A stretch of DNA of 64,000 nucleotides from Eurosta solidaginis. Taxonomy: Eukaryota > Arthropoda > Insecta > Diptera > Tephritidae. A model generated the notes under the pieces. The model saw only the letters and a program-made list of their open reading frames with translations. It searched no databases and had not been told where the DNA came from. Location: NCBI RefSeq assembly GCF_040869045.1, contig NC_090320.1:241552978-241616977 (forward strand), given 5' to 3'. The position numbers and the translations under genes are program-made. Shown one piece after another: positions 1-39,056 of the stretch. The stretch's first letter is position 1; every line of letters begins with the position of its first letter.

Positions 1-737
1 TTGGCTGGAACACCTTTCCGCCGGTGAGGGTTGTTTAACAGTACCAAATCTCCCGCCAAGAAACCTTCCGAATTAAAGTTCTTCTCATACCAGTGTTTCA
101 TCTTACTACTCATTACCCTGGACCGTACCTTCACACTCTGTTGTTTGGTCAATGAACCTCTTCGTAGAGCTTGCGCTGGACGGATTTGCTTTGCATAATC
201 GGTATCGTTCCCACATTTCACAACAGTAGTGCGCTCCGGCTTGAAACTACCCTCGCATTCTTTCTCGGAAATTCGTTGCTTCGTTTTCCTGCGTCTTTTA
301 GGTTTTGTCAATGCCAGTGTTTCTCTCGCAGGTACTTTTGATTTTGATTTATTTGGCCCATTCGATCTATCAATTTTTGCCTTTGACTTTCGTGGTCTTT
401 CTCGAGTCTTTTCCACCAGTACCCGATTACTGCTGAACCCTTTTTCCAAACTAAAGTTAAGTGGTATGTCCTGGTTCTTATAGCGCATAATTTTTCTCCG
501 CATATCGATCCTGACGTCATGGTCAACCAAGAAGTCCACTCCCAATATGACTTCATCAACAATATCCGCCACAACAAATTTGTGTAGAACCATGACCTTC
601 CCAATCAATACTTCACATATCACTTCTCCCTGAACTTGGTTATACTCGCCAGTGACCGTACGCAACTTTGCTCCAGGTAACGGTTTTACTCTCCTGTTGA
701 CCAAGTCAGATCGGATCAAGGAATGAGATGCGCCCGT
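1..737 (-). pseudogene. Retropepsin remainder plus integrase C-terminal-like tail of the gypsy element (partial)
   Basis: Reading the minus strand from 737 to 1 gives one open frame with no stop. It begins with the target-site copy of T-G-A-S from the protease active site. It continues through a typical retropepsin body with ILGVDFL (flap and 'ILG' region), a long lysine/arginine-rich linker, and then WYEKNF...GDLVLLNNPHRRKG near the window edge. The last motif resembles the gypsy integrase C-terminal region, where a Tyr-rich helix precedes GD-V-LxNP-RRKG. In ordinary gypsy elements some 700-900 residues of reverse transcriptase, RNase H and integrase core separate these two; here about 120 residues do. 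I infer an internal deletion derivative. The reading frame is separated from its gag by the LINE insertion. Confidence 0.65.
725..737. repeat. Target-site duplication of the LINE, 3' copy
   Basis: GAGATGCGCCCGT occurs here and again at 4797-4809, exactly bounding the LINE. Read on the minus strand it encodes T-G-A-S of the host element's protease motif, so those codons are duplicated. Perfect identity suggests a young insertion. Confidence 0.92.
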
Positions 738-3700
738 TGTTGTTGTTGTTGTTGTAGCAATGCTCGCCCCACCTAATAGCCGCGACCGATCACAAATTGT
801 CATCAATATCCTCTAACGGGAGTCCAAGGAAACTTGCCGTTTCAACAGGGGTGGACCATAAGGAAAGGGGTGTTAGAGGCGTTGGTTCCACATTACAATT
901 AAAGAGATGGTTGGTGTCATGTGGGGACACATTGCAAGCAGGGCATACATTTTGTATGTCGGGGTTGATTCTGGATAGGTAAGAGTTTAACCTGTTACAG
1001 TATCCAGAACGAAGTTGAGCAAGAGTGACACGCGTTTCCCTGGGGAGTATGCGTTCCTCTTCTGCGAGTTCTGGATATATTTCTTCAAGTACTGGATTCA
1101 CCGGGCAATTCCCGACATAAAGGTCCGACGCCTGTCTATGGAGTTCACCAAGGACCTGCTTGTGTTTTTCCGCTTCATACGGCTGGGTTCTCAGGTGCCG
1201 TATTTCCTCAAAATGCTTACGGAGATGACTCCTTAGGCCCCTAGGCGGTGCTGGTTCGTCAATCAGATGTCTGTTGGGATGCCCAGGTTTCTGGGTATTC
1301 AACAGAAACCGTTTGGTCAGCATCTCATTTCTCTCCCTGATGGGGAGTATTCTCGCCTCATTATGCAGATGGTGTTCTGGGGACATAAGAAGACAGCCCG
1401 TGGCGATTCTGAGAGCAGTATTTTGGCAGGCCTGTAGTTTCTTCCAGTGGGTGGTTTTTAGGCTTGGCGACCATATGGGTGACGCGTAGCACGTAATCGG
1501 CTGGCTAATTGCTTTGTATGTGGTCAAGAGCGTTTCTTTATCTTTTCCCCAGGTACTGCCAGCAAGGGATTTGAGGATTTTATTACGGCTCTGAATTCTT
1601 GGAACAATTGCGGTTGCGTGCGCACCAAAATGTAGATCCTGATCAAACGTCACACCCAAGATTTTGGGGTGTAGGACAGTCGGTAGCGTAGTGCCATCGA
1701 CGTGGATGTTCAATATGGTCGACATTTGGGGCGTCCATGTTGTAAATAAGGTCGCGGAAGATTTAGTCGGTGACAATGACAGGTTTCGCGAGGCGAAAAA
1801 ACTGGAGAGATCAGGGAGATAGCCGTTTATTTTATTGCATAGCTCATCGATCTTTGGGCCTGGGCCTGTGGCCATTATTGTGCAGTCATCGGCGTAGGAA
1901 ACGATTGTGACTCCTTCCGGTGGTGAAGGTAGCTTAGATATGTAGAAATTAAACAAAAGCGGGGATAGGACACCACCCTGTGGCACCCCTTGTTTAATTC
2001 TCCTTTGTTTTGATGTTTCGTTTCTGAATTGCACCGATGCCTGCCGACCACCCAGGTAATTTGCGGTCCACCTTTTAAGACATGGGGGAAGGGTAGACCC
2101 TTCCAGGTCTTCCAGTAACGAGCCATGGTTGACCGTATCAAAAGCTTTTGATAGGTCTAACGCTACGAGTACTGTTCTATGGTGGGGATATTGATTCAAA
2201 CCGCAATTTATCTGGGTGCTAATGACATTTAGCGCGGAGGTAGTGCTATGGAGTTTTCTGAAGCCATGCTGATGAGGGGCTAGCTGCAAATGTGCTTGGA
2301 AATGAGGGAGCAAAATGGCTTCAAGCGTCTTTGCCACTGGCGATAGGAGAGATATCGGACGATATGACTCACCTACGTTAGCTGGTTTCCCAGGCTTTAG
2401 TAGCGGGACCACCTTGGCCATTTTCCATTTCTCGGGTATGACAAAGGTGGAAAGAGACAGGTTGAAGACATGCGCTAAATATTTGAAACCGTCTTTCCCT
2501 AGGTTTTTAAGCATCGCCATGCCTATGCCGTCTGGGCCCACTGCTTTGGATGGTTTAGCGCGACCAATGGCGTCCTCAACCTCTCTAGCGGTGATGGTAA
2601 TTGGTGACGCGCTGAGTTTGTCTTTATGTGCACGTCTATTGGCTCTCCGTCTATCTTTGTCGACCGTAGGATGCATTATATATTGTCGGCAGAAAGCGCT
2701 CGCGCATTTTTTCGCATCCGACAGCACCTTATCGCCAAAGGCGATGGAAACTTTGTCTTTGTACTTAGTCGGATTCGATAGGGACTTTACGGTGGACCAA
2801 AGTTTACCTACACCGGTAGAGAGGTTACAACCTCTTAGGTGCTCTTCCCATTTCGCCCGCTTGTGTTCGTCCTCAAGCGATCTGATGCGTTGGTTTATAT
2901 CCCTTATTTGGGGGTCGCCTGGATCAAGCTGTCTTATAAGGTCGCGTTCCCTCGCTAAGCTCGCGGCCTCCGCCGGGAAGTGGGGCCGGATTTCGGGAAT
3001 TCTCCCGGCGGGAATGAAATGTGCCGAGGCGGATTCAATGACCTTACGGAAGGCACGCTCCCCTTGGCGGGCATCAGTCGGGATAGGGAGGGCAGCAAAG
3101 CTGCTGTCTGTTGCAGATTTATATTCTTCCCACTTTCCTTTTTTGAAGTTTATGAAAGTGCGTTTTTCGGTGACGATGAAGTCGGCGGTACGCTCGAACG
3201 AAATAAGTATGGGCAGGTGGTCGGATGCCAATGTTACCATCGGCTGCCAGTTGACGCAGTTTACGAGTTCTGCGCTCACGATTGAGATATCTGGCGAGCT
3301 ATGACAGCTTCCTACCATACGTGTGGGGGCGTCTCCGTTAATTGTGCAGAACGTCGTTTCGTCTATTTGATCCGCCAACATCTCACCCCTACTGTCCGCC
3401 CGCAAGTTTGAATGCCATAGGTCGTGATGGGCATTGAAATCGCCTAAGATAATGCGATTGTTGCCAGTGAGTAAGGCCTCGATATTAGGGCGGTATCCAC
3501 TGGGGCAACAGGTGACAGGAGGGATGTAGATGTTGATGATTTCTAGATTTGCATCGCCTGACCGGACAGATAGGCCTTGACGTTCTAAGACATTGTCACT
3601 GCGGTCGATGCCAGGATCAAATATATGATATTGCACAGAGTGGTGTATAATAAACGCGAGGCCGCCTCCATTTCCGCTCTCGCGGTCTTTCCTGTGGACA

Positions 3701-4796
3701 TTATAACCAGAGCAGGTCTGCAATGCAGATCTTGCTGTGAGTTTAGTCTCTTGAATCGCAGCAATGCGGATGTTGTGCCGCTTCATGAAATCGACTATCT
3801 CCGTAATCTTCCCAGTTAGTCCATTACAGTTGAACTGCAGAATTCTGAAGTGCATGAGGGGTGACGCCGCCACTCTAGGGGTAAGTGAGGGGTGACTACG
3901 CCTAGGTTGTGGAAGGCCAGGACGCAATTGCTGTTGTGGCCTTGAGACTGGGCGCCCTTGGGCAAGCATTGGGGTACCCGGATGATTTGGGTTTGCGACC
4001 TGGCAACATGGCGCGATGAAACCCGTCGAGGGGTTGCCGTCGCGGAGACCAGAACATCTAGGAAAGTGGCACCACCCAAGGCAGGAGCTGCATTGAGCGG
4101 ATGTCGCAAACCTATATATTCTGTGCTGGCAGACGGTGCAAACGGAGGCAGGGACTAAGAGTCTGTTTCCCTGACCTGCACGATTGCTGCCAGAAAAGAG
4201 GGGAGGAGAAGAAGACGGGGGCAGGGGCTGATGCTCAGCATTGCTACCAGCTCTACTACGAAGGTAGTAGTTATGAGTGGTATCAGCTGTTTGAGTTGTT
4301 GGCGCCGTGGGGCGCGAGCAGCAGCGGGTACTTGTTGTGGCTTGCTGAGCAGCGAAGCTGCTGGAAGGTAGTGGGGATACGCTTAGGCGTAGACTACGGG
4401 ACGCCCTTGGGCGTGAGCAGCAAGGAGCCACAAAAGATTTATAAAAGTAACGTGGACGTCGGGTTTTGGGATCAAGCCCAGAACAACCTGTCCGATGCAA
4501 CCATCCCTTGCACGAGACACACTGAACAGAGTATGACCGTCCTAAAAAGATTCTTCTCTGGCAAATGCAGCAAAACCATTTCTCAGGACCGGGATGAGGA
4601 GACGGACCCGGATTGGGTTCGATACCTTCCCGGAGTAAGAGAATATGTAGCAGTCCTGCTGCAAGGAGCTGCTGGGAGGATGACAATTTGTGGGAGGGAC
4701 GAAACAAATTAAATGGGGTCACACTGAAATGACAGTCCTTGGTCGGGAAAAATCCCGAGTCGCTCCGGTACATAGAACCGACTGCCTTGGGAAGCG
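738..4796 (-). mobile_element. Full-length Jockey-like non-LTR retrotransposon (LINE)
   Basis: The element is about 4.06 kb and is bounded by a perfect 13-base duplication. On the minus strand it opens with a short 5' leader of 23 bases before the first ATG, carries one long open frame, and ends in a short 3' UTR and a (CAA)n-type tail (GCTACAACAACAACAAC, plus-strand 738-756). A hairpin TCGGGA/TCCCGA lies just after the start codon. There is an apurinic-type endonuclease and a reverse transcriptase but no RNase H, which fits Jockey-group rather than I-group elements. Full length, perfect duplication and an uninterrupted frame all point to recent activity. Confidence 0.9.
790..4773 (-). CDS. 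LINE polyprotein: 2A-like leader, two PHD-like fingers, endonuclease, reverse transcriptase
   Basis: An intact protein of 1327 residues that copies the element's RNA into nicked chromosomal DNA. I start at the ATG at 4773-4771, the first inside the element; the frame happens to stay open upstream into the host gag, which is coincidence. Residues 36-47 are hydrophobic and lead into EGIEPNPGP (49-57), a 2A-like motif whose predicted break lies between G56 and P57. Two Cys-rich PHD-like fingers follow (about 64-119 and 211-257). The endonuclease starts near 307 with FNCNG, QETKL, GDFNAHHD and ASDHLP. The reverse transcriptase carries LDLSKAFDTV, GVPQGGVLSP and SYADD. A C-terminal CPAC...H...C zinc motif is present. 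No separate ORF1 exists, so the finger region may act as the nucleic-acid-binding part. Function of the 2A-like motif is inferred. Confidence 0.92.
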   Translation of the reverse strand: MYRSDSGFFPTKDCHFSVTPFNLFRPSHKLSSSQQLLAAGLLHILLLREGIEPNPGPSPHPGPEKWFCCICQRRIFLGRSYSVQCVSCKGWLHRTGCSGLDPKTRRPRYFYKSFVAPCCSRPRASRSLRLSVSPLPSSSFAAQQATTSTRCCSRPTAPTTQTADTTHNYYLRSRAGSNAEHQPLPPSSSPPLFSGSNRAGQGNRLLVPASVCTVCQHRIYRFATSAQCSSCLGWCHFPRCSGLRDGNPSTGFIAPCCQVANPNHPGTPMLAQGRPVSRPQQQLRPGLPQPRRSHPSLTPRVAASPLMHFRILQFNCNGLTGKITEIVDFMKRHNIRIAAIQETKLTARSALQTCSGYNVHRKDRESGNGGGLAFIIHHSVQYHIFDPGIDRSDNVLERQGLSVRSGDANLEIINIYIPPVTCCPSGYRPNIEALLTGNNRIILGDFNAHHDLWHSNLRADSRGEMLADQIDETTFCTINGDAPTRMVGSCHSSPDISIVSAELVNCVNWQPMVTLASDHLPILISFERTADFIVTEKRTFINFKKGKWEEYKSATDSSFAALPIPTDARQGERAFRKVIESASAHFIPAGRIPEIRPHFPAEAASLARERDLIRQLDPGDPQIRDINQRIRSLEDEHKRAKWEEHLRGCNLSTGVGKLWSTVKSLSNPTKYKDKVSIAFGDKVLSDAKKCASAFCRQYIMHPTVDKDRRRANRRAHKDKLSASPITITAREVEDAIGRAKPSKAVGPDGIGMAMLKNLGKDGFKYLAHVFNLSLSTFVIPEKWKMAKVVPLLKPGKPANVGESYRPISLLSPVAKTLEAILLPHFQAHLQLAPHQHGFRKLHSTTSALNVISTQINCGLNQYPHHRTVLVALDLSKAFDTVNHGSLLEDLEGSTLPPCLKRWTANYLGGRQASVQFRNETSKQRRIKQGVPQGGVLSPLLFNFYISKLPSPPEGVTIVSYADDCTIMATGPGPKIDELCNKINGYLPDLSSFFASRNLSLSPTKSSATLFTTWTPQMSTILNIHVDGTTLPTVLHPKILGVTFDQDLHFGAHATAIVPRIQSRNKILKSLAGSTWGKDKETLLTTYKAISQPITCYASPIWSPSLKTTHWKKLQACQNTALRIATGCLLMSPEHHLHNEARILPIRERNEMLTKRFLLNTQKPGHPNRHLIDEPAPPRGLRSHLRKHFEEIRHLRTQPYEAEKHKQVLGELHRQASDLYVGNCPVNPVLEEIYPELAEEERILPRETRVTLAQLRSGYCNRLNSYLSRINPDIQNVCPACNVSPHDTNHLFNCNVEPTPLTPLSLWSTPVETASFLGLPLEDIDDNL

Positions 4797-4809
4797 GAGA
4801 TGCGCCCGT
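4797..4809. repeat. Target-site duplication of the LINE, 5' copy
   Basis: GAGATGCGCCCGT, identical to 725-737. It marks the 5' end of the LINE on the minus strand and shows the 5' end is complete, with no truncation. Confidence 0.92.
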
Positions 4810-6245
4810 ATCTACAGTCAGTATTCGTTCGTTGCCATCCACATTCCCTCTGACGGTAAGACTGCTCGATTTTCTACCAATTTGCGACACAGATATCACA
4901 GGGCATTCAATAGCTGGATCTAGCTCTCTACCTCTTACTCGCTCTTGCTCATCTCCTCCAGCTTTGCGTTTATGGCCACCTACATTGTTGGAACTATTAG
5001 GACCAAGATCGCAATGACGTGCAATGTGACCTGGGTTGCCGCACTTGAAACATTTAATAACTCCGGCATTCTTCTGTTGAGATCCCTTCAGTGCTTCCAA
5101 AATTGTTTCTACCCACTCTGGCGTTTCTACTTCCACTCGGCGTGCTTTGAAAACTGGTTTACACAGAAGCGACGCTGTTTCCTGAATCAGAGCATGCGAT
5201 ACCGTTTCAGCAAATGTTAGTTTTGGATTCGCATATGTAGCCCGCTTCGTTTCCACATCTCGTATGCCATTTATAAAACTCTGGATTTTTACCCTCTCGG
5301 TGTATTCCACGGGTGCGTCCGCATTTGCGAGATGAGCCAACCTTTCAACATCTGAAGCAAACTCTTGCAATGTCTCATTTGCTTTTTGGTAGTGGTTTTG
5401 CAACTCAATTTGGAATATCTGTTTCTATGCTCGCTTCCATAACGTCTCTCGACAGCGGCCATCAATGCTTCATAGTTGTTCCGCTCTCCTTCGGGAATCG
5501 TCTGTAGGATTTCGGCTGCTGGCCCTTTCAATGCCACGAACAGAGCTGCAACTTTATCTTCAGCATTCCAGTTATTCGCTGCCGACGTCTTCTCAAATTG
5601 GAGCTTAAATACCTGGAATGGAACAGAACCATCAAACGTTGGGGATTTTACCTTCAGAGTAGACGTTGAAGTGATTGGACGGTTCAATTGTAACTCCTGA
5701 ATCCGATCTTTCAAAGCATCCATCTCGGCCTCCACTTTATTTTGTCGTTCACAAACAGCCTCCAGCTGCGATGAGAATTTTGTTTCCTGTGCCTCCAGCT
5801 TTGTTGAGATACGCTCTTCTTGTGCTTCGAGCTGTAATGTTATACGTGCCTCTTGTTCTTTTAATTGTTCTGCAATTTGTGACGCCATGTGTGTTTTCTG
5901 TTCTTCCATCTTCAATGTTATTCGTGTCTCTTGGGATTCCATCTGTGATGACATATACGTTTTCTGTTCTTCTAGTTGAGATGACATTGTCGATGTTTGA
6001 GCAGATATTGCAGCCAAAATCATGTTCAAGTCTGTGCTCGTAACTGTCTGCGTAACTGTCTCTTCCATTTTTGTTGTTTCCTCGCCATCAAGATAAAAGT
6101 CATACTCTTCCACGTCAATTCCTTCTACTTCCATTGCCTCTCGTAGCCGTGCCTGAAGTTCAAGTTTAACGCCGCTTGTATTCAATCCACGGGCTTCCAA
6201 CTCCTTCTTTAGTTGCTGGATCTTCAATTCACTGAACTTTGCCAT
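4797..6245 (-). pseudogene. Gypsy-type gag with SAP domain, CCHC knuckle and start of protease (frameshifted)
   Basis: Structural protein of the LTR element. The ATG at 6245-6243 follows the primer binding site by about 40 bases. Residues 4-38 form a SAP-type fold (LKKELEARGL...GVKLELQARL), which in other proteins binds DNA or chromatin. A long Glu/Gln-rich coiled coil follows, then a capsid-like region (FDGSVPFQVFKLQFE) and, downstream, CFKCGNPGHIARHC (CCHC nucleocapsid knuckle) and the protease motif VDTGAS. Near 5403 the capsid reading jumps by one base, so the first part runs out of frame and the second part continues in another frame. This lies inside capsid, not at a gag-pol border, so I read it as a mutation (or assembly error), not a programmed shift. 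Confidence 0.8.
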
Positions 6246-6282
6246 GTCCTTGTTGTCCTCTGGAATTTATTCAACAATTCCT

Positions 6283-6294
6283 CTTCTGACACCA
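6283..6294 (-). other. Primer binding site, tRNA-Leu-like
   Basis: Two bases inside the LTR the minus strand reads TGGTGTCAGAAG. This complements the 3' end CTTCTGACA-CCA found in insect tRNA-Leu. Position and sequence fit reverse-transcription priming in gypsy-type elements. Confidence 0.7.
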
Positions 6295-6296
6295 AT

Positions 6297-7017
6297 TGTA
6301 ACGAATTTACTTGCAAATCCTCTTATTTGCAATCCTCTGCTAAGTTCGAATCACTAAACTGTTGAATAAATAACTCCAATTTGTAATAATGCAAAATGGC
6401 CTTTATTAAAGTACTTCACAATACACTCAAACTGTGCAACGAATAGCTTGCTTAATAACCACGCTGATTGATAGCTCAATGAAACTCTACTATTCAAAAT
6501 AATACTGCTATTGCTCGCTAGATATCGTCTTAATCGCAACTGCTTGACAACTCAAATCAAACTGAATTACTTCTTACTCGCTTGCCACGCTTTTATAGTT
6601 TACGCTGCATACTTCTAGGCTCTTCGATTTCCAGAACTTACTAGTTGTTTCGGCTACAAAATCGCCAGCCACAACTACGTGCACAAATTATTGCTCTCTC
6701 TTGTGACAACTCAGATAAGATATATGCATGTGTTTGTGCATTGCCGCTCCGCTGCTCGTATCCGTACATATGTGTAGACGCAATTATTTATTCGTTTATG
6801 TAGATACATAAAGATTGAATTATTGATGTGAATGTTTGTAGTTTACAGTCTCTCGCGCGCACATAGGCATATAAGTAAATGCATCTGTGTGTGACATCTC
6901 TCTGGGCTGCCTTATATATGTGTATACTTGATTTAATTATTAACGTAAATACTGCTTGGCATGGCCTTAGCATCGCCTTAGTGATGGGATAATTTAGTGA
7001 TGCTAATATCCGTGACA
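6297..7017 (-). repeat. 5' LTR of the gypsy-type element
   Basis: About 721 bases bounded on the minus strand by TGTCACG and CGTTACA, an imperfect TG...CA inverted pair. The inner edge meets the primer binding site. Minus-strand AATAAA hexamers lie in the inner half. The partner LTR is outside the window, so ends are inferred from structure only. Confidence 0.7.
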
Positions 7018-7240
7018 ATATTTTAACAGCTAGACTTTCGTATATAACAAATGTTGTTGTCTGAAAAATTCAAAGAGATCGTCGTATATATAGTATATAT
7101 CTCACACAACCAATTGTTCAGATGAGAAAGTTTTCGTAACTACTGCCTCATTTTAACAGCCAGAAGCTTCAAATTTCTCCAAATGCTTACGTATATAGCA
7201 TATATTGTTGTCTGAAAAAATCATAGAGATGGGTGGTATA
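7018..7240 (-). repeat. Older DINE-like repeat, left fragment interrupted by Helitrons
   Basis: Contains the unit typical of the 26083-28460 repeat in reverse (TGTTGTCTGAAAAA, CATAGAGAT, GGTGGTATA). It stops at 7240 where the Helitron starts and resumes at 17611 (TATATTATATACTTC). The two halves read on continuously compared with the copy near 26260. This proves the 10.4 kb between them is one insertion locus. Confidence 0.75.
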
Positions 7241-7290
7241 TCTAATTCTAATATCTAATATCTAATCTAATATATATTATAAATGGGAAA

Positions 7291-7351
7291 GTTTGGATGT
7301 TAAGATGTTTGGATGTTTGGATGTTTAGATGTTTGGATGTTTGGATGTTTG
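7291..7351 (+). repeat. Octamer microsatellite (GGATGTTT)n in the Helitron leader
   Basis: About seven imperfect copies of GGATGTTT, with AAGATGTTT and TAGATGTTT variants. The second Helitron has a shorter version at 12393-12428, so copy number differs between units. Confidence 0.8.
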
Positions 7352-8089
7352 TCCAGACGTTTGTCTTTGTGACTCAATAACGCAAGAACGGCTGGACCGA
7401 TTTGGATGAAATTTTGCACACATATAGCCAATAGTCTAGAAGGATCTACTAGCTATATATTTTTCAAAAGGGGCGTGGTCCCCGCCCCCTAGGAACAGTT
7501 ATAATTTAATTATTATATTTTTTCGTCTTTGCGACTGAATCACGCCAGAATGGCTACACGGATTTTGATGAAATTTGGGACACAGACAGTAGTCTACCAG
7601 CGAAATTTTTTTCGAACATGGAAAGAGGGGTGGGGGTCCCACGACCCTTCGAGAAATTATTTTTCATAATTTTTACACATTATAACTTTACGTATACTTA
7701 CGTATATGTGATATCACCAATATCACAGACTCAAGGGGTCAAATAAGTCGAGGGCTTACAAAGTAAGCAGTGACACCCTCCGCCCGCCCCCCTTTATCTC
7801 CCCCTCTGGTGTAAAATCCATAAATTGTTATAACTCAATCTAAATTTTCTCCTAAATCAATAGTTTTTGGTATCTGGTACATACAGAACGAGATCTAGAC
7901 AATTTTGGAGGAACGATCAGTGGTCCTCTCCTCTACTCCCGCCATCCGCCCTCCATCAATTGTTTTTATTAGCACGCTTTTATTAGCTTTACCTGTATGT
8001 TTCTATCTAACTTTTTATTCGCTCCAATGCGCCTGCTGCCTTATTAACATGGTTTTATAATTAGCTTCACCTTATTTGTAATCCCGTAA

Positions 8090-11000
8090 GAGTCATATCG
8101 AGACCCTTCCGGGATCATTTCTGGATGGTTTTCGGGATCGGTCCGGGATTACGCCGGGGTAATTTCGGGACTTTTTCGGGACTATTTCGGGATCATTTTG
8201 GGACCCTTCCGGGATCATTTCTGTATAGTTTACGGGATCTGTCCGGGATCCCGTCGGCGTTATTTTGGAATATTTTCGGGACCATTCCGGAATCATTTCG
8301 GGACTATTTCGCGATCATTTGGGGACCCTTCCGGCATCATTTCTGGATGGTTTTCGGGATCCGTGCGGGATCTCGTCGGGGTCATATGGGGACTTTTTCG
8401 GGATCATTTGAGGGCTCTTCCGGCATCATTTCTGGATGGTTTTCGGGATCCGTCCAGGATATCGTCGGGGTCATTTGGGGACTTTTTCGGGATCATTTGG
8501 GGGCTCTTCCGGCATCATTTCTGGATGGTTTTCGGGATCCGTCCGGGATCTCGTCGGGGTCATTTGGGGACTTTTTCGGGATCATTTTGGGGCTCATCCG
8601 GCATCATTTCTGGATGGTTTTCGGGATCCGTCCGGGATCCCGTCGGGGTAATTTCGGGACTTTTTCGCGACTAATACGGGATCATTTGGGAACCCTTTCG
8701 GAATCATTTCTGGATGGTTTTCGGGATCCGTCCGGGATCCCGTCGGGGTCATTTCGGGACTTTTTCGCGACTAATACGGGATCATTTGGGAACCCTTTCG
8801 GCATCATTTCTGGATGGTTTTCGGGATCCGTCCGGGATCCCATTAGGGTAATTTCGGGACTATTAGGGGATCATTTGGGAACCTTTCCGGCATCATTTCT
8901 GGATAATTTTCGGGATCCGTCCGTGATGCCGACGAGGTCATTTCGGGACTATTTCGGGATCATTTGGGATACCTACCGGCATCATTTCTGGATGGTTTTT
9001 GGGATTCGTCCGGGATCCCGTGGTGGTCCTTTCGGGACTTTTTTTCGACTAATACGGGATCATTTGCGGCCCCTTCGGCATCATTTCTGGATAGTTGTCG
9101 GGATCCCGTCACGGTCATTTCGGGACTATTAGGGGATCATTTGAGGACCTTTCCGGCATCATTTCTGTATTGTTTTCGGAATCCTTTCGGGATCCCGTCA
9201 GGGTCATTTTGGGACTTTTTTGGGGTTAATACGGGATCATTTGGGGATCCTCTAGGGGTCGTTTCGTGACTTTTTCTGTTTTATTTCGGGATCATTTGGG
9301 GACCCTTCTGGCATAATTTCTTGATGGTTTGCCGGATCTATCAGGGTCATTTCGGGACCATTTTGGGATCATTTGGGGACCCTTCCGAGATCATTTCTGG
9401 ATCCGTCCGGGATGCCGTAGGAGCCATTTCGGGATTTTTTGTTACTTTTCCGGGATATTTTTTGGACCCTTCCGGGATCATTTCTGGATCTGTGCGGGAT
9501 CCCATCTGGGTCATTTCCGGACTATTTCGGGATCATTTTGGGATCCTTCCGGAATCATTTCTGTATGGTTTTCGCGATCCGTCGTTGATTCCCTCGGAGC
9601 CATTTCGGAACCTTTTCTGGAGTATGTCGGGGTCATTTGGGGACTTTTTCGGGATCATTTGGGGCTCTTCCGGCATCATTTCTGGATGGTTTTCGGGATC
9701 CGTGCGGGATCTCGTCGGGGTCATTTGGGGACTTTTTCGGGATCATTTGGGGGCTCTTCCGGCATCATTTCTGGATGGTTTTCGGGATCCGTCCGGGATA
9801 TGGTCGGGGTCATTTGGGGACTTTTTCGGGACCATTTGGGGGCTCCGTCCCGGATCCCATCAGGGTAATTTCGGGACTATTAGGGGATCATTTGTGGACC
9901 TTTCCGGCATCATTTCTGGATAATTTTCGGTATCCGTCCGGGATGCCGACGAGGTCATTTCGGGATTATTTCGGGATCATTTGGGATACCTACCGGCATC
10001 ATTTCTGGATGGTTTTTGGGATTCGTCCGGGATCCCGTCGGGGTCATTTCGGGACTTTTTCTCGACTAATACGGGATCATTTGCGGACCCTTTCGGCATA
10101 ATTTCTGGATAGTTGTCGGGATCCGTTCGGGATCCCGTCACGGTCATTTCGGAACTATTAGGGGATCATTTGAGGACCTTTCCGGCATCATTTCTGGATA
10201 GTTTTTGGAATCCTTTCGGGATCCCGTCAGGGTCATTTCGGGGCTTTTTCGGGATCATTTAAGGATGGCTTTCAGGATTCGTCCGGGAACCCGTCAGGGT
10301 AATTTCTGGACTTTTCCGAGACTATTTCGGGATCATTTTGGGACCTTCCCAAGATCATTTCTGGATGGATTTCGGGATTTGTCCGGGATGCCCTCAGGGT
10401 CATTTTGGGACTATTAGGTGAGCATTTGAGGACCGTTCCGGCATCACTCTGGATGGTTTTCGGTATACGTTCAGATTCCCGTCGGAATAATTGCGGGACT
10501 TTTTCGGGATCATTGGGGTCCCTTCCAAAATCATTTCTGGATGGTTTTTGGGATTCGTCCGGCATCCCGTCGGGGTCATTTCGGGACTTTTTCTCGACTA
10601 ATACGGGATCATTTGCGGGCCCTTTCGGATCATTTCTGGATAGTTGTCGGGATCCGTTCGGGATCCCGTCAGGGTCTTTTCGGAACTATTGGGAGATCAT
10701 TTGAGGACCTTTCCGGCATCATTTCTGGTTAGTTTTCGGGATCCTTTCCGGGTCCCATCAGGGTCATTTCGGGACTTTTTCGGCATCATTTAAGATTGGT
10801 TTTCAGGATTCGTCCGGTATCCGTCAGGGTAATTTCTGGACTTTTCCCAGACTATTTCGGGATAATTTTGGGACCGTCCCAAGATCATTTCTGGATGGAT
10901 TTCGGGATCTGTCCGGGATGCCGTCAGGGTCATTTTGGGACTATTAGGTGATCATTTGGGCGGCCACCGTGGTGTGATGGTAGCGTGCTCCGCCTATCAC

Positions 11001-12235
11001 ACCGTATGCCCTAGGTTCAACTCCCGGGCAGAGCAACATCAAAATTTTAGAAATAAGATTTTTCAATTAGAAGAAAATTTTTCTAAGCGGGGTCGCCCCT
11101 CGGCAGTGTTTGGCAAGCACTCCGGGTGTATTTCTGCCATGAAAAGCTCTCAGTGAAAACTCATCTGCTTTGCAGATGCCGTTCGGAGTCGGCATAAAAC
11201 ATGTAGGTCCCGTCCGGCCAATTTGTAGGGAAAATCAAGAGGAGCACGACGCAAATTGGAAGAGAAGCTCGGCCTTAGATCTCTTCGGAGGTTATCGCGC
11301 CTTACATTTATTTTTTATTTTTTAGGTGATCATTTGAGGACCTTTTCGGCATCAATTCTGGATGGTTTTCGGTATCCGCTAAGGATCCCGTCGGAATTAT
11401 TGCGGGACTTTTTCGGGATCATTTGGTGTCAGTTCCGGCATCATTTCTGGCTGGTTTTTGGGATTCGTCCGGCATCCCGTCGGGTTCATTTCGGTACTTT
11501 TTCTCGACTAATACGGGATCATTTGGGGATCCTCTAGGGGTCGTTTCGTGACTTTTTCTGTATTATTTCGGGATCATTTTGGGACCCTTTCGGCATAATT
11601 TCTTGATGGTTTGCCGGACCCATCAGGGTCATTTCGGGACCATTTTGGGATCATTTGGGGACCCTTCCGAGATCATTTCTGGATCCGTCCGGGATGCCGT
11701 AGGAGCCATTTCGGTATTTTTTGTTACTTTTCCGGGATAGTTTTTGCACCCTTCCGGGATCATTTCTGGATCTGTGCGGGATCCCATCTGGGTCAATTCC
11801 GGACTATCTCGGGATCATTTTGGAATCCTTCCGGAATCATTCCTGTATGGTTTTCGCGATCCATCGTGGATCCCCTCGGAGCCATTTCGGAACTTTTTCT
11901 GGAGTTAGTCGGGATAATTTAGGGACCCTTCCTGGATATTTTCTGGATGGTTTTTGAGATCCGCCCGGAAGCCCGTCAGGGTCATTTCGGAACCTTTTCG
12001 GGATCATTTTGGAACACCTTCAGGGATCATTCCTGTGTGGTTCTCTGGATACGTCTAGAATCGTGTCGCTCTCATTTCGGGTTTTTTGGGACTATTCGGG
12101 GAACTTTTGGAGACCCTTTCGGGGCATTTCTGGATGGTTTTCGGGATCAGTCCGCGATAGCGTTGGCGTCATTTCGTAGCTTTTTCTGGATAATTTCGGG
12201 ATCATTTGGGATCCTATCAGGTTATCAGCTCATTT
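8090..12235 (+). repeat. Minisatellite array, 89/100-base unit, inside Helitron 1
   Basis: Anchors CTGGATGG occur at 8432, 8521, 8610, 8710, 8810, giving periods of 89, 89, 100 and 100; the 11-base difference is the insertion GCGACTAATAC. Units are built from shorter related motifs (TTTCGGGACTTTTTC, GGGATCATTT) and many hold CGGGATCC-GTCCG-GGATCCCG, an 8-base stem hairpin. By length, about 40 units. A divergent block beginning near TTGATGGTTTGCCGGA recurs at about 9323 and 11603, so there is higher-order structure. Long open frames here are a by-product of the repeat and are not genes. A SINE sits at 10959-11321. Confidence 0.92.
10959..11321 (+). mobile_element. tRNA-derived SINE, copy 1 (363 bases)
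   Basis: Flanked by the direct repeat TTAGGTGATCATTTG (10944-10958 and 11322-11336), so it is a true insertion into the minisatellite. The head reads TGGTGTGATGGTAGCGTGC (A-box-like) and GGTTCAACTCC (B-box-like), as in a pol III promoter from a tRNA. A conserved body and a T-rich tail follow. Two more copies of the same 363-base length occur at 38429 (minus) and 48469 (plus). Confidence 0.88.
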
Positions 12236-12344
12236 AGTTCTTTTTTTTACTCAATTACAAAAATAAAATGCATTAGACAGAAAACAAAATTTTAAAAAGA
12301 TAATAAGCAGGCTAACGCGAATAGCCCATATATTTAAAATTTTC

Positions 12345-12375
12345 CTTGCGGACGGGGCCGCGGGTAAAGGCTAGT
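12345..12375 (+). other. Helitron 3' terminus (hairpin and CTAG-T), unit 1
   Basis: TTGCGGACGGGGCCGCGGG forms a short GC stem, followed at about 10 bases by CTAG and a host-type T. The same terminus recurs at 17581-17610. Here the next base already belongs to a second Helitron. Confidence 0.8.
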
Positions 12376-15300
12376 ATATTATAAATGGGAAAGTTTGGAT
12401 GTTAAGATGTTTGGATGTTTGGATGTTTGTCCAGACGTTTGTCTTTGTGACTCATTAACGCAAGAACGGCTGGACCGATTTGGATGAAATTTTGCACACA
12501 TATAGCCAATAGTCTAGAAGGATCTACTAGCTATATATTTTTCAAAAGGGGCGTGGTCCCCGCCCCCTAGGAACAGTTATAATTTAATAATTATATTTTT
12601 TCGTCTTTGCGACTGAATCACGCCAGAATGGCTACACGGATTTTGATGAAATTTGGGACACAGACAGTGGTCTACTAGCGAAATCCCACGACCCCTTCGA
12701 GAAATTATTTTTCATAATTTTTACACATTATAACTTTACGTATACTGGCCTTCACCACTATCACAGACTCAAGGGGTCAAATAAGTCGAGGGCTTACAAA
12801 GTAAGCAGTGACACCCCCCGCCCCCCCCCCTTTATCTACCTATCTGGTGTAAAATCTATAAAATGATTTTCTCCTAAATCAATAGTTTTTGGTATCTGGC
12901 ACATACAGTTTCTAATTAGCTTCACCTTATTTATGATCCCGTAAGGGTCATATCGAGACCCTTCCGGGATCATTTCTGGATGGTTTTCGGGATCGGTCCG
13001 GGATCCCGCCAGGGTAATTTCGGGACTTTTTCGGGACTATTTCGGGATCATTTTGGAACGCTTCCGGGATCATTTCTGTATAGTTTTCGGGATCCGTCCG
13101 GGATCCCGTCGGGGTTATTTTGGGACATTTTCGGGACTATTCCGGAATCAATTCGGGACTATTTCGCGATCATTTGGGGACCCTTTCGGCATCATTTCTG
13201 GATGGTTTTCGGGATCCGTCCGGGATCCCGTCGGGGTACTTTCGGGATCATTTGCGTACCTTCGAGAGATAAATTCTTGATGGCTTCCGGGATCATTACG
13301 GGACTTTTTCGGGGTTATTTTGGGACCCTTTAGGCATCATTTCTGGATGGTCTTCGGGATTCGTCCGGCATCCCGTCGGGGTCATTTCGGGACTTTTTCG
13401 CTACTAATACGGGATCATTTGGGGACCCTTTCGGCATCATTTCTGGATGGTTTTCGGGATCCGTCCGGGATCTCGTCGGGGTAATTTGGGCACTTTTTCG
13501 GGATCATTTGGGGGCTCTTCCGGCAACATTTCTGGATGATTTTCGGGATCCGTCCGGGATCTCGTCGGGGTCATTTGGGGACTTTTTCGGGATCATTTGG
13601 GGGCTCTTCCGGCATCATTTCTGGATGGTTTTCGGGATCAGTCCGGGATCCCGTCGGGGTCATTTCGGGAATATTTCGGGATGATTTTGGGGCTCTTCCG
13701 GCATCATTTCTGAATGATTTTCGGGATCCGTCCGGGATCCCGTCGGGGTCATTTCGGGACTTTTTCGCGACTAATACGGGATCATTTGGGAACCCTTTCG
13801 GCATCATTTCTGGATGGTTTTCGGGATCCGTCCCGGATCTCGTCGGGGTCATTTTGGGGCTCTTCCGGCATCATTTCTGGATGATTTTCAGGATCCGTCC
13901 GGGATCTCGTCGGGGTCATTTGGGACTTTTTCGGGATCATTTGGGGGCTCTTCCGGCATCATTTCTGGATGGTTTTCGGGATCCGTCCGGGATCCCGTCG
14001 GGGTAATTTCGGGACTTTTTCGCAACTAATACGGGATCATTTGGGAACCCTTTCGGCATCATTTCTGAATGATTTTCGGGATCCGTCCGGGATCCCGTCG
14101 GGGTCATTTCGGGAATTTTTTGCGACTAATACGGGATCATTTGGGAACCATTTCGGCATCATTTCTGGATGGTTTTCGGGATCCGTCCGGGATCCTATCA
14201 TGGTAATTTCGGGACTATTAGGGGATCATTTGGGGACCTTTCCGGCAACATTTCTGGATAATTTTCGGGATCCGTCCGGAATGCCGACGAGGTCATTTCG
14301 GTACTATTTCGGGATTATTTGGGATACCTACCGGCATCATTTCTGGATGGTTTTTGGGATTCGTCCGGGATCCCGTCGGGGTCATTTCGGGACTTTTTCT
14401 CGACTAATACGGGATCATTTGCGGACCCTTTCGGCATCATTCCTGGATAGTCACGGTCATTTCGGGACTATTAGGGGATCATTTGAGGACCTTTCCGGCA
14501 TCATTTCTGGATAGTTTTCGGAATCCTTTCGGGATCCCGTCAGGGTCATTTCGGGACTTTTTTCGGGATCACTTAAGGATGGCTTTCAGGATTCGTCCGG
14601 GAACCCCTCAGGGTAATTTCTGGACTTTTCCGTGACTATTTCGGGATCATTTTGGGACCTTCCTAAGATCATTTCTGGATGGATTTCGGGATCTGTCCGG
14701 GATGCCGTCAGGGTCATTTTGGGACTATTAGGTGATCATTTGAGGACCTTTCCGGCATCACTTCTGAATGGTTTTCGGTATCCGTTCAGGATCCCGTGGT
14801 AATCATTCCGGGACTTTTTCGGGATCATTTGGGGTCCCTCCCAAAATCATTTCTGGATGGATTTCGGGATCTGTCCGGGATCCCGTCAGGGTCATTTAGG
14901 GATGCGTTCGAGATCCCGTCAGGGTCATTTCGGGATTTCTTCGGGACTATATCGGGATCATTCCTGGATGGTTTACGGGATCCGTCCAGGATCCCTTAAG
15001 GGTCATTTCGGGACTATTAGGTGATCATTTGAGGACCTTTCGGGTTATTTCGGGACCTTTTCGGGGCTAATACGGGATCATTTGGGGATCCTCTAGGGGT
15101 CGTTTCGTGACTTTTTCTGTTTGATTTCGGGATCATTTGGGGACCCTTCCGGCATAATTTCTTGATGGTTTGCCGGATCCATCAGGGTCATTTCGGGACC
15201 ATTTTGGGATCATTTGGGGACCCTTCCGAAATCATTTCTGGATCCGTCCGGGATGCCGTAGGAGCCATTTCGGGATTTTTTGTTACTTTTCCGGGATAGT

Positions 15301-17609
15301 TTTTGGACCCTTCCGGGATCATTTCTAGATCTGTGCGGGATCCCAGCTGGGTCATTTCCGGACTATTTCGGGATCATTTTGGGATCCTTCCGGAATCATT
15401 TCTGTATGGTTTTCGCGATCTGTCGTGGATCCCCTCGGAGCCATTTCGGAACTTTTTCTGGCGTATGTCGGGGTCATTTGGGTACTTTTTCGGGATCATT
15501 TGGGGGCTCTTCCGGCATCATTTCTGGATGGTTTTTGGGATCCGTCCGGGATTCCGTCGGGGTCATTTCGGGACTTTTTGTCGACTAATACGGGATCATT
15601 TGGGGACCCTTTCGACATCATTTCTGGATAGTTTACGGTATCCGTCCGGGATCCGGACGGGGTCATTTCGGGACTATATCGGGATCATTTGGGGTACCTA
15701 CCTTCATCATTTCTGGTTGGTTTTCGGTATCCGTCCGGGATCTCGTTGGGGTCATTTGGGGACCTTTTCGGGATCATTTGAGGGCTCTTCCGGCATCATT
15801 TCTGGATAATTTTCGGGATCCGTCCGGGATGCCGACGAGGTCATTTCGGGATCATTTGGGATACCTACCGGCATCATTTCTGGATGGTTTTTGGGATTCG
15901 TACGGGATCCCGTCGGGGTCATTTCGGGACTTTTTCTCGACTAATACGGGATCATTTGCTGACCCTTTCGGCATCATTTCTGGATAGTTGTCGGGATCCG
16001 TTCGGGATCCCGTCACGGTCATTTCGGGACTATTAGGGGAACATTTGAGGACCTTTACGGCATCATTTCTGGATAGCTTTCGGAATCCTTTCGGGATCCC
16101 GTCAGGGTTATTTCGGGACTTTTTCGGGATCATTTAAGGATGGCTTTCAGGATTCGTCCGGGAACCCGTCAGGGTAATTTCTGGACTTTTCCGAGACTAT
16201 TTCGGGATCATTTTGGGACCTTCCCAGGATCATTTCTGGATGGATTTCGGGATCAGTCCGGGATGCCGTCAGAGTCATTTTGGTATTAGGTGACCATTTG
16301 ATGACCTTTCCGGCATCACTTCTGGATGGTTTTCGGTATCCGTTCAGGATCCCGTCGGAATCATTGCAGGACTTTTTCGGGATCATTTGGGGTCCCTCCC
16401 GAGATCATTTCTGGATCTGTCCGTGATCCCGTCAGGGTCATTTAGGGATGCGTTCGAGATCCCGTCAGGGTCATTTCGGGACTTCTTCGGGACTATATCG
16501 GGATCATTTCTGGATGGTTTACGGGATCCGTCCAGGACCCCTTAAGGGTCATTTCGGGACTATTAGGTGATCATTTGAGGACCTTTCCGGCATCACTTCT
16601 GCATGATTTTCGATATCCGTTCGGGGTCCCGTCGAATCAATGCGGGCCTTTTTCGGAATCATTTGGGATCCCTTCCGGCATCATTTCTGGATGGTTTTCG
16701 GGATTTGTCCGGGATCCCGTCGGGGTTATTTCGGGACCTTTTCGTGGCTAATACGGGATCATTTGGGGATACTCTAGGGGTCGTTACGTGACTTTCTGTA
16801 TTATTTCGGGAACATTTGGGGACCCTTCCGGCATAATTTCTTGATGGTTTGCCGGATCCATCAGGGTCATTTCGGGACCATTTTGGGATCATTTGGGGAC
16901 CCTTCCGATCCGAATGATCTGGATCCGTCCGGGATGCCGTAGGAGCCATTTCGGGATTTTTTGTTACTTTTCCGGGACAGTTTTTGGACCATTCCGGGAT
17001 AATTTCTGGATCTGTGCGGGATCCCATCTGGGTCATTTCCGGACTATTTCGGGATCATTTTGGGATCCTTCCGGAATCATTTCTGTATGGTTATCGCGAT
17101 CCGTCGTGGATCCCCTCGGAGCCATTTCGGAACTTTTTCTGGAGTATGTCGGGATAATTTAGGGACCCTTCCTGGATATTTTCTGGATGGTTTTTGAGAT
17201 CCGCCCTAGAGACCGTCAGGGTCATTTCGGAACCTTTTCGGAACACCTTCAGGGATCATATTTGTGTGGTTCTCTGGATACGTCTAGGATCGTGTCGTTG
17301 TCATTTCGGGTTTTTTTGGGACTATTCCGGGAACTTTTGGAGACCCTTTCGGGGCATTTCTTGATGGTTTTCGGAATCCGTCCGCGATAGCGTGGGGGTC
17401 ATTTCGTAGCTTTTTCTGGAAAATTTCGGGATCATTTGGGATCCTATCAGGTTATCAGCTCATTTAGTTCTTTTTTTTACTCAATTACAAAAATAAAATG
17501 CACTAGACAGAAAACAAAATTTTAAACAGATAACTTGATAAGCAGGCTAAAGCGAATAGCCCATATATTTAAATGTCTCCTTGCGGACAGGGCCGCGGGT
17601 AAAGGCTAG
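12375..17609 (+). mobile_element. Non-autonomous Helitron, unit 2 of the head-to-tail pair
   Basis: Begins directly after CTAG of unit 1 with TATATTATAAATGGGAAAG, lacking the TC-rich first bases of unit 1, and ends with the same hairpin and CTAG (17606-17609) before T. The leader matches unit 1 closely but lacks about 190 bases that unit 1 has near 7890-8070. Its trailer (17465-17609) is nearly the same as unit 1's. Direct abutment fits rolling-circle read-through or a second insertion exactly at the first one's end. Confidence 0.78.
12930..17460 (+). repeat. Minisatellite array, 89/100-base unit, inside Helitron 2
   Basis: Same unit family as 8090-12235, about 48 units by length, without the SINE. 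The divergent block with TTGATGGTTTGCCGGA recurs at about 15162 and 16842. Unit order differs from array 1 in the middle but the last part (17090-17460) matches the end of array 1, so the arrays share an origin and then changed by unequal exchange or slippage. Confidence 0.92.
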
Positions 17610-17610
17610 T
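17581..17610 (+). other. Helitron 3' terminus, unit 2
   Basis: TTGCGGACAGGGCCGCGGG then AAAGG and CTAG, followed by the host T. One base differs from unit 1 inside the hairpin loop (ACAGG versus ACGGG), so the stem is kept. Confidence 0.8.
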
Positions 17611-17790
17611 ATATTATATACTTCATATAAATTGTCATTTTTGTCCCTTTTTTACGGCTAGAAGCTTAAAATTTAATGAAATTTCATCAAATACTTACGC
17701 TTACGTCACATATTGTTGGGATAAGTGGATCATAGTCATAGCTATTTCATGCAGACCAGAACTTTGCATCCTCACACAAACTACTTACCT
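17611..17790 (-). repeat. Older DINE-like repeat, right fragment
   Basis: Continues the repeat broken at 7240. TACGGCTAGAAGCTTAAAATT and GCATCCTCACACAAAC match, in reverse, the region 26095-26270. It leads into the AAACGGTTTTATTTAGC border motif. Confidence 0.7.
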
Positions 17791-26082: not shown

Positions 26083-26495
26083 AAAATACGTAGGTACTTT
26101 GTGTGAGGATGCAAAGTTTCAGGTTTTTTGTGGTCTGCGTGTAAAAACTATGACTACGAATCAGGTATTTCAACAATATATGACGTAGACGTAACTATTT
26201 GATGAAATTTGATGAATTTTAAAGCTTCTAGCCGTAAAAAAGGGGCAAAAATGACAGATTATATGAAGTATATAATATATATACCACCGATCTCTATGAT
26301 TTTTCAGACAACAATATATGCTATATACGTAAGCATTTGGTGAAATTTGAAGCTTCTAGCTGTTAAAATGGGGAAGAAATTGTGCAAAGTTTCTTATCTG
26401 AACAATCGGTTGTATGAGATATATACTATATATACCACCGGTCTCTACAATTTTTTCAGACAACAATATATGCTATACACGTAAGCATTTGGTGA
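26083..26495 (-). repeat. DINE-like repeat units (about 120 bases)
   Basis: Two to three copies of a unit with CAGACAACAATATATGCTAT, ACGTAAGCATT and GAAGCTTCTAGC. The same unit makes up 27640-28460 and the Helitron flanks at 7018 and 17611. Confidence 0.7.
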
Positions 26496-37690: not shown

Positions 37691-38428
37691 GCATAGATTT
37701 TATCGCGGGCTTGGCGACTAAATCAAAAAAAAACCGTAACACGTATATTTGTCAAAAAAGATCCGAAAATACATAATATTGGATCTCTATCATAATCAGC
37801 GGTGGGCAGGTTACCAAATTGAGAATGTGTTAGTAAACACGAACGCGTAGCGAGCACGAAAGCAAAATCAATTATTTATTTAGTTTGATTTCAATGCTTG
37901 AACGGTGAACACGTGTCACGCGCACTCTTTGGTACTCTGTTTTAAGCGCGCGTGCGACACTTCCTCACCGTACGACCATCGAAATCAAACTAAAAGACAT
38001 TGTAAATTTTACCAAGTAGCGCAACTAACAGCTGATCGGTGAAAATTCGCACATTCACACGCACAGTTCTCGACTCAGTTGCAAAAAAAAAACTTTAGAT
38101 TATCTAACTCAAATTTTAAAGTGAGATAATCCTTACGAATTTATGTATATAGAATTTATAAGGCGTTTTTGTTGTTATTAAAACAATAGTTTTATTTATA
38201 TTAAAGCTTTTATCATTTTTTTTTTTTTAACTTTGAAAAAACTCCGAACACCATTCCTTCATTATATGACATTCGACTGCCTAGTCCACTGCCTTACACT
38301 CTATTCGCAACATAACTTCTATTTAAGCTGCCAAACTATATAGTAAACAATGCTAAAAGAGCAGTCGTTGATTTTCACGAAGTAGCCATTGTGCTATCGC
38401 TTATCGTATACATATATGGTCGCTTACA
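37691..38428. other. Unassigned DNA
   Basis: No border or frame recognised. A GC-richer stretch around 37830-38080 (GCGTAGCGAGCACG, CACGCGCAC, CAGCTGATC) is unlike the neighbouring repeats and could be host sequence. Confidence 0.35.
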
Positions 38429-38791: not shown

Positions 38792-38797
38792 TTACAT

Positions 38798-39056
38798 GCC
38801 AACCTAATAAAACCGGACTGCGTTTTTTAGCGCACGCAAACAACCGGCGTTTTTTGCCCTAACCCAAATAAGCATGCGTTGCGACAATGTAAAGCATGTG
38901 GGCAAACGTCAAATCTAAATGTCACGCAGAACAAAAATTGGAAATCGAGTTAGGTTTTCACGCAGCAAATTCAATTTGAGTTGCTCTCATACAAGTTGTA
39001 TGTGCATGAGACATTTTTGACAGAAAATGACTTGCGTGCGTTTATATTAGGTTGGC
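38798..39056. mobile_element. Candidate MITE with 12-base TIRs
   Basis: GCCAACCTAATA at 38798 and TATTAGGTTGGC at 39045-39056 are perfect inverted ends of a 259-base block. There is no coding content. No clear target duplication was found. Confidence 0.45.

What the first reader, a model, noticed from the sequence alone, without database searches (positions are those of the whole stretch)
7241..17609. Head-to-tail pair of Helitrons, each filled with a 4 kb minisatellite
Seen: a TC start after A, CTAG-T end with hairpin, an internal CTAG join at 12374/12375 where the second unit starts at once, and the broken host repeat that rejoins across the pair. Known: Helitrons move by rolling-circle replication, insert between A and T and make no target duplication; tandem copies are expected if termination is missed. 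Inference: this is a rolling-circle concatemer, or a second insertion at the first one's end, and the element moves and seeds satellite DNA.
Basis: partly seen in the sequence, partly recalled or inferred. Interest (0 to 1): 0.8.

Follow-up and report, generated by a model that had tools for sequence, protein, structure and literature searches.

The report
Helitrons stacked by self-targeted insertion
The two joined mobile elements are one of thousands of head-to-tail stacks in this genome, and the stacks seem to have grown because new copies kept inserting, whole, into the front tip of copies already present, which leaves a readable trace of earlier insertions.

Summary
The pair is real. Two non-autonomous Helitrons (about 5.1 and 5.2 kb), each filled by the same degenerate minisatellite, lie head to tail between an A and a T of a host repeat. 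An uninterrupted copy of that repeat elsewhere in the window is the exact empty site. In the 1.9-Gb genome this kind of join occurs at least 3,115 times, before 52% of 6,039 exact unit starts. In the sample read, units of one locus are no more alike than units of different loci. Outer tips of stacks carry extra TCTAA/TCTAATA stubs (one-token tips: 0 of 22 stacks, 10 of 19 apparent single copies). A duplicated host locus shows a 2-unit and a 5-unit state; one extra unit is a complete TC...CTAG element at an A|T in a resident tip. Stacks thus grow mainly by insertion of whole Helitrons into the 5' tip of resident copies. A minority may be true concatemers (L016). Single cases of self-insertion are published; the scale, tip specificity and stub record look new.

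The parts
7100..7240 (.). left host flank (host repeat family of about 152 bp), ends ...GGTGGTATA
   Evidence: with 17610-17760 it forms one uninterrupted repeat copy
7241..7265 (+). 5' tip with TC tokens TCTAAT/TCTAATA/TCTAATA/TCTAA; read as stub(s) of the resident unit 2 and/or inherited extra 5' ends. Limit between stub and unit 1 is uncertain (7253/7254, 7260/7261 or 7265/7266)
   Evidence: token analysis
7266..12374 (+). unit 1: leader from TCTAATATATATTATAAATGGG to about 8101, minisatellite about 8102-12219, trailer about 12220-12374 ending CTAG
10959..11323 (+). tRNA-like SINE inside unit 1's array; target duplication AGGTGATCATTTG at 10946-10958 and 11324-11336
   Evidence: other copies at 48468-48833(+) and 38428-38809(-); tRNA origin judged by eye, not by a tool
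12348..12361 (+). putative 3' hairpin GCGG...CCGC of unit 1, 13 nt from the CTAG end
   Evidence: sequence; folding not better than shuffles
12371..12390 (+). head-to-tail join CTAG|TATATTATAAATGGG (type A)
   Evidence: same kind of join 3,115 times in the genome
12375..17609 (+). unit 2 (read as the resident): tip lacking TC + leader to about 12935, minisatellite about 12936-17455, trailer about 17456-17609 ending CTAG
17610..17760 (.). right host flank, begins TATATTATATACTTC
26131..26419 (-). paralogous empty site of the host repeat
   Evidence: 253/290 identical, no gap at the join

Best explanation
The window holds a two-unit stack of a non-autonomous, minisatellite-bearing Helitron family. 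Unit 2 entered the host repeat first, between A and T. Unit 1 then entered the 5' tip of unit 2 as a complete TC...CTAG element, between A and T of ...TCTAATA|TATATTATAAATGGG. The outer part of unit 2's tip was left outside as a stub, and the rest of unit 2 now starts right after unit 1's CTAG. Shown: the standard Helitron ends, the empty site, genome-wide recurrence of the join, heterogeneity of units within sampled loci, stubs at outer tips of stacks, and a small and a large state of one duplicated host locus. Inferred: the order of events in the window itself, that the family's Rep protein, acting in trans, treats a resident 5' end as a preferred target, and that multi-token tips arise when a donor is nicked at an outer TC.
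For: (1) Empty site, A|T, no duplication. (2) 3,115 exact joins with 0-30 nt spacer; of the 100 listed, 59 are CTAG|TATATT and 29 CTAG|TATATATT, i.e. two A|T positions in the tip (TCTAATA|TATATT, TCTAA|TATATATT); 6 of 100 begin CTAG|TC, 6 are other. Total exact starts 6,039. (3) Units of one locus are not closer than units of different loci: leaders 0.041 (28 pairs) v 0.044 (918), trailers 0.088 (8) v 0.062 (343). Leader and trailer of the same unit correlate (r 0.39, p 0.025); trailer and next leader across the join do not (r 0.04, p 0.33; 16 loci). (4) 41 outer starts on C1: one-token tips in 10 of 19 apparent single copies and 0 of 22 stacks (p 8e-5); tokens v units Spearman 0.52 (all 41), 0.62 (22 stacks, p 0.002); with duplicated sites counted once p 4e-4 and Spearman 0.43. 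(5) Duplicated host locus S58/S39: same 5' flank, 3' flank 99.4% over 1,275 bp; 2 units v 5 units; S58_1 = S39_3 (leader 0.010, next best 0.053; trailer 0.000). The extra unit 4 is TA[TCTAATATATATT...CTAG]TATATT against TATATATT in S58. (6) Five paralogous sites share the host-side tokens and differ mainly on the element side. (7) Outer units of stacks lie nearer the leader consensus (15, median 0.7%) than inner ones (21, median 2.9%), p 8e-4, but see against.
Against: The one-stub-per-unit record is not strict: of 22 stacks 13 have more tokens than units, 7 equal, 2 fewer; the window has 5 tokens for 2 units; S39 units 1-2 left one stub. Stub type v first join is 7/2/2/7 (p 0.057, 3 further cases outside the two types), or 7/2/3/7 (p 0.07) with L081 added. 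In the 20 loci picked by similarity to the window's tip, first joins are type A in 12 of 19 although the last stub is mostly TCTAA. These need multi-token donors, lost units or TA slippage. The age test weakens when outer and inner units are taken from the same six stacks (median 1.8% v 2.9%, p 0.08; outer nearer than the inner mean in 4 of 6; in S58 the outer unit is the farther one). Nine of 19 'single' copies have more than one token and may be hidden stacks or multi-token donors; single status rests on exact matches. L016 (clean CTAG|TC, units 99.3% identical over 1.7 kb) looks like a concatemer or duplication. S58_2 v S39_5 differ by about 4% though their 3' host flank differs by 0.6%.
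Confidence: 0.82

Rival explanations
1. Rolling-circle concatemer: the terminator of one element was missed and a two-unit product was inserted in one step.
For: Head-to-tail order is what it predicts, and this is the stated reading of tandem Helitrons in bats and silkworm (PMC4067079, passage). One of 19 loci (L016) has a clean CTAG|TC first join and 99.3% identical units over 1.7 kb. S39 units 1-2 arrived with a single stub, as a dimer would.
Against: The window's join lacks TC; 6 of 100 listed joins begin CTAG|TC. Units in one locus are not more alike than between loci. Token number rises with unit number.
Confidence: 0.06
2. Local tandem duplication through the 9-bp repeat TATATTATA, present in the element's 5' end and by chance in the host's right flank.
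For: Three of the six 9-mers in the window, at 7273, 12375 and 17610, are exactly placed for it.
Against: The same join occurs thousands of times, also where the right host flank lacks the 9-mer (S58: TAAAGATATA), and unit pairs are heterogeneous.
Confidence: 0.04
3. Hetero-multimers formed once and then moved as blocks; the stacks are copies of a few ancestral dimers.
For: Leader 1 and leader 2 correlate weakly across loci (r 0.22, p 0.13); S39 units 1-2 look like a block.
Against: Correlation not significant with 16 loci; S39 unit 4 is a single-unit gain; stubs accumulate; first-unit lengths differ widely (3.5-9.6 kb).
Confidence: 0.11
4. Homologous integration of circular Helitron intermediates into resident copies.
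For: Circles with joined ends are known for Helitrons (PMC5876387, passage); would give heterogeneous head-to-tail units.
Against: Predicts linkage of trailer 1 with leader 2 across the join, not seen in 16 loci (r 0.04); predicts CTAG|TC joins and no stubs.
Confidence: 0.04

Closest known systems
Adjacent Helitrons at maize r1 (PMC2267711; passages read)
   Same: Two dissimilar Helitrons head to tail, explained by consecutive insertion.
   Different: One case with CTAG|TC (a G/T join) and unclear order; here at least 3,115 joins, mostly at A|T inside the resident tip, and order inferred from stubs and a small/large pair of loci.
FoHeli self-insertion and multiple 5' termini in Fusarium (PMC5148889; passages and section 16 read)
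   Same: Self-insertion; elements with several 5' termini explained by nicking the leftmost one; three copies in tandem in Metarhizium acridum, read as two insertions into a 5' end or rolling-circle replication.
   Different: Helitron2-type ends and few cases; no fixed offset in the tip and no stub record in the passages read.
Tandem Helitrons of bats and silkworm; centromeric Helitron arrays of plants (seen only as cited in PMC4067079, PMC5876387 and PMC12628747)
   Same: Head-to-tail Helitron arrays.
   Different: Explained there by bypassed termination or rolling-circle amplification; plant arrays are truncated units, many with several 5' ends and one 3' end. The silkworm paper itself (PMC3789558) has no 'tandem' in its held main text. 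Here units are complete and heterogeneous.
DINE-TR1 and other Helitrons/Helentrons with internal tandem repeats (PMC12628747 passage; search listing)
   Same: Conserved ends with a central tandem array.
   Different: Canonical TC/CTAG ends here; stacking of whole units is the main feature. The repeat sequences were not compared.

Membership tests
Helitron (canonical) | 5' end begins TC after a host A | tested here: met
   Window 7240/7241; base before TC is A in 33 of 34 tips tallied (34 of the 41 outer starts, 4 duplicates and 3 with unclear edges dropped)
Helitron (canonical) | 3' end CTRR followed by host T | tested here: met
   CTAG|T at 17609; S58 and S39 end CTAG|TAAAG
Helitron (canonical) | insertion between A and T, no target duplication | tested here: met
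   empty site 26131-26419; S39 unit 4 against S58
Helitron (canonical) | short hairpin close to the 3' end | tested here: inconclusive
   GCGG/CCGC stem 13 nt from the end, not better than shuffles
Helitron (canonical) | autonomous partner with Rep/Hel protein sharing the ends | tested here: inconclusive
   Genome holds 2,786 first-look candidates for PF14214, 150 of 150 scored over cut-off; the one upstream stretch read (1.8 kb, L117) has no leader; none linked to these ends
Helentron/DINE-1 | insertion in T-rich target, no CTRR end | tested here: not met
   canonical CTAG end and A|T insertion; T-rich target from PMC4067079, absence of CTRR recalled
Rolling-circle concatemer | join CTAG|TC | tested here: not met
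   window join CTAG|TATATT
Rolling-circle concatemer | units of one locus nearly identical when formed | tested here: not met
   for the sampled loci; window units differ; L016 is an exception

The most novel reading that the evidence does not exclude
This Helitron family recognises the 5' end of its own resident copies as its main target. About half of the surviving units sit in front of a tip of some 20 nt, out of 1.9 Gb, mostly at two fixed A|T positions. A mobile element would thus build its own stacks, and each outer tip is a time-ordered record of insertions. This would reverse the usual reading of tandem Helitrons as missed termination.
Probability: 0.55. Interest if true: 0.78.

Novelty: new variant of a known kind. 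Interest (0 to 1): 0.62.

Why it matters
Tandem Helitrons are commonly cited as evidence for missed termination during rolling-circle replication. Here a genome with thousands of joins lets that be tested, and most listed joins carry the marks of independent insertion into a fixed target in the element's own 5' end. If right, Helitrons can show strong target choice beyond A|T, tandem arrays and satellite-rich blocks can grow without replication errors, and the stub series gives a rare ordered record of transposition at single sites.

Tried and rejected
Tandem duplication through the 9-bp TATATTATA looked attractive from the window alone and was dropped when the join proved recurrent. A strict one-stub-per-unit record was tested and rejected as a strict rule. 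Global MAFFT alignment of the units misaligned the arrays, so BLAST blocks were used; the chaining script also skipped much of the arrays. Exact-pattern scans of genome contigs (1 of 2 used) and viral contigs (1 of 8) gave 0 hits. One Rep locus was read 1.8 kb upstream and held no leader. Not obtained: the total number of 3' ends, and the insertion rate at TATATTATA outside the element, because the genome search did not complete. Full 3' ends of the apparent single copies were not fetched.

Sample limits. L009-L028 were chosen by similarity to the window's leader and tip (20 of the 40 scored places, from 826 candidates), so they favour multi-token tips. The C1 sample is the first 100 exact starts of 6,039, 41 of them outer. 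Unit numbers come from exact matches plus the joins read, so they are lower bounds. One search used hand-coded counts and is superseded. in turn counted L081 as single although a join lies 9.7 kb on, and one host stretch in L042 as a token; one search corrects both. In one search the first unit of L028 was missed by the motif, so its second unit stands among the 21 'first' leaders, and L010's second leader was too short to use. In one search, of 21 loci L020, L021, L024 and L028 were left out, and L010 for a short second leader. In one search the 21 inner units come from six stacks (S81 6, S83 5, S39 4, S73 3, S72 2, S58 1); S72, S73, S81 and S83 are paralogous sites, as are S39 and S58. S72_a and S72_b lie 15-19 kb from the S72 start and may not belong to that stack.
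Full report
WHAT IS THERE. The pair at 7241-17609 has the edges of a Helitron insertion: host A before TC at 7241, CTAG then host T at 17609/17610. The joined flanks match one uninterrupted copy of the same host repeat at 26419-26131(-), 253 of 290 identical, with no base gained or lost at the join. Both units hold a degenerate minisatellite (TRF periods 11, 22, 33, 89 among others). The units are related but not copies of each other: a 292-bp leader block is 98.3% identical, array blocks about 87-94%, the last kilobase 90.8%, with different array structures. Unit 1's array is split by a tRNA-like SINE with a 13-bp target duplication. I saw no Helitron protein among the ORFs of 120 aa or more (read by eye, no family scan); those inside the pair read through the array. 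The host is probably a fly, from its retroelements and recalled motifs; this was not tested.

THE JOIN. At 12374/12375 the sequence is CTAG|TATATTATAAATGGG. Unit 2 lacks the TC start and the first 32 nt of unit 1's leader. That stretch consists of tokens beginning TC: TCTAAT, TCTAATA, TCTAATA, TCTAA, then TCTAATATATATTATAAATGGG. A missed terminator would give CTAG|TC.

GENOME SCALE. The window lies in a 1.908-Gb assembly. The join with a 0-30 nt spacer, both sides exact, occurs 3,115 times (reversed-pattern control 0); there are 6,039 exact starts. At least 52% of exact starts therefore follow another unit at once. Among the first 100 joins listed, the spacer is TATAT in 59, TATATAT in 29, starts with TC in 6, other in 6; these 100 fall into 48 same-strand clusters of 1 to 5 joins. 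Of 20 leader loci fetched at 10 kb, 19 contain a 3' end after the first start, and in 19 of 19 the first such end is followed by another unit: type A in 12, type B in 4, TTATAT in 2, clean TC in 1. These 20 were chosen for similarity to the window's tip, which favours stacks.

HOW STACKS FORM. (a) Kinship: in 44 leaders and 27 trailers, units of one locus are no closer than units of different loci; for 23 later units the rank of the locus's own first unit averages 8.9 of 21 against 11 expected. Leader and trailer of the same unit correlate, while trailer and next leader across the join do not (16 loci). (b) Stubs: if each newcomer enters the tip of the outermost unit, an outer stub remains each time. 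In 41 outer starts on C1, one-token tips occur in 10 of 19 apparent single copies and 0 of 22 stacks (p 8e-5), and tokens rise with units, also among stacks alone (Spearman 0.62, p 0.002). Clean cases are L046, L058, L062 (2 tokens, 2 units, stub TCTAA with join TATATATT), L074 (2 and 2, stub TCTAATA with join TATATT, its CTAG one base short), L057 (3 and 3, both joins as predicted) and L040 (4 and 4, all three as predicted). The rule is not strict: 13 of 22 stacks have more tokens than units and 2 fewer; the window has 5 tokens for 2 units; the last stub matches the first join in 14 of 18 two-type cases (p 0.057), or 14 of 19 with L081 (p 0.07). Elements carrying several 5' ends, as proposed for Fusarium Helitrons (PMC5148889, section 16), would explain extra tokens. 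(c) Two states of one locus: the host locus with 5' flank ...GTGTTTAA and 3' flank TAAAGATATATAATTC exists twice on C1 (18.27 and 18.51 Mb; 3' flank 99.4% over 1,275 bp). One copy has 2 units, the other 5. The first unit of the small stack is the third of the large one (leader 0.010, next best 0.053; trailer 0.000), and the last units share the host flank. Unit 4 of the large stack reads CTAG TA[TCTAATATATATT...CTAG]TATATT, where the small stack reads CTAG TATATATT: a complete element placed between A and T in a resident tip. Recombination between neighbouring trailers would instead leave CTAG|TATATT and a mixed trailer, so loss from the large stack is less likely, though TA slippage keeps it from being excluded. 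Units 1 and 2 added one stub together: they may have come as a dimer, or one stub was lost; for this block a deletion across the short TATATATT repeats could also have made the small state. (d) Five paralogous host sites (L018, L072, L073, L081, L083) share the host-side tokens, with one internal difference in L073, and differ on the element side, where the model adds tokens. (e) Age: outer units of stacks are nearer the leader consensus than inner ones (15 v 21, median 0.7% v 2.9%, p 8e-4). Within the six stacks that gave inner units the difference is weaker (1.8% v 2.9%, p 0.08; right direction in 4 of 6), so this is support, not proof.

WINDOW PAIR. By this reading unit 2 is the resident and unit 1 the newcomer. 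A type A join needs a stub ending TCTAATA, so unit 1 most likely starts at 7261 or 7254 and carries two or three tokens; a start at 7266 needs a 2-nt TA change. This step is inferred.

A SECOND CLASS. L016 has CTAG|TCTAATATATATT and its two units are 99.3% identical over the 1.7 kb held. This is what bypass or a fresh duplication predicts. So both processes may occur, with self-insertion dominant.

MECHANISM. Host insertions follow A in 33 of 34 tips tallied, in varied contexts, so the A|T rule alone does not explain why about half the units sit in a resident tip. I infer that the Rep protein, acting in trans, binds and opens the resident 5' end, its own nicking substrate, and the incoming strand is joined there. 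The genome has abundant Helitron Rep domains, but none was linked to these ends.

WHAT IS KNOWN. Adjacent maize Helitrons were ascribed to consecutive insertion, with unclear order (PMC2267711, passages). Self-insertion and multiple 5' termini are described in Fusarium (PMC5148889, passages and section 16). Bat and silkworm arrays are ascribed to bypass (PMC4067079, passage), and plant centromeric arrays to rolling-circle amplification (PMC12628747, passage). The same review cites insertion-site preference as the main source of transposon dimers in Drosophila melanogaster. Helitrons with internal tandem arrays are common. Nine paper searches listed no paper whose title or abstract start describes a fixed self-target in the 5' tip or a stub record; most papers of subscription journals are not held.

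VERDICT. Observation largely right, concatemer reading not supported for this pair, a broader and more interesting phenomenon behind it.

Noticed in passing
window 10959-11323: tRNA-like SINE with 13-bp target duplication inside unit 1; further copies at 48468-48833 and 38428-38809.
   Followed up: partly
L016 (read on its minus strand, positions 235-9995): Stack with clean CTAG|TC join and 99.3% identical units over 1.7 kb: candidate true rolling-circle concatemer.
   Followed up: partly
G000 C1 about 25-27 Mb (L018, L072, L073, L081, L083): Five paralogous host sites with the same flank TTGCTCTGGAAAAA| and differing stacks: a segmentally duplicated region rich in these Helitrons.
   Followed up: partly
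window 7360-7422 and 7521-7584: The leader holds two copies of a 64-bp motif at 81% identity (also in unit 2), perhaps a doubled recognition site.
   Followed up: no
L079 (C1:25665132): A stack inserted in what looks like the leader body of another unit at ATTAACA|T, so tip targeting is not absolute.
   Followed up: no
window 790-6245 (-): A reading frame that looks like a non-LTR reverse transcriptase runs on from a zinc-knuckle, gag-like frame (ORFs 790-5403 and 5289-6245): probably one retroelement inside another. Judged by eye.
   Followed up: no
window 39677-40256: A 97-copy TAAAGT hexamer array, open in several frames.
   Followed up: no
genome G000: Helitron Rep domain (PF14214): 2,786 first-look candidates, 150 of 150 scored over cut-off, a few with open frames over 1,100 aa.
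   Followed up: partly
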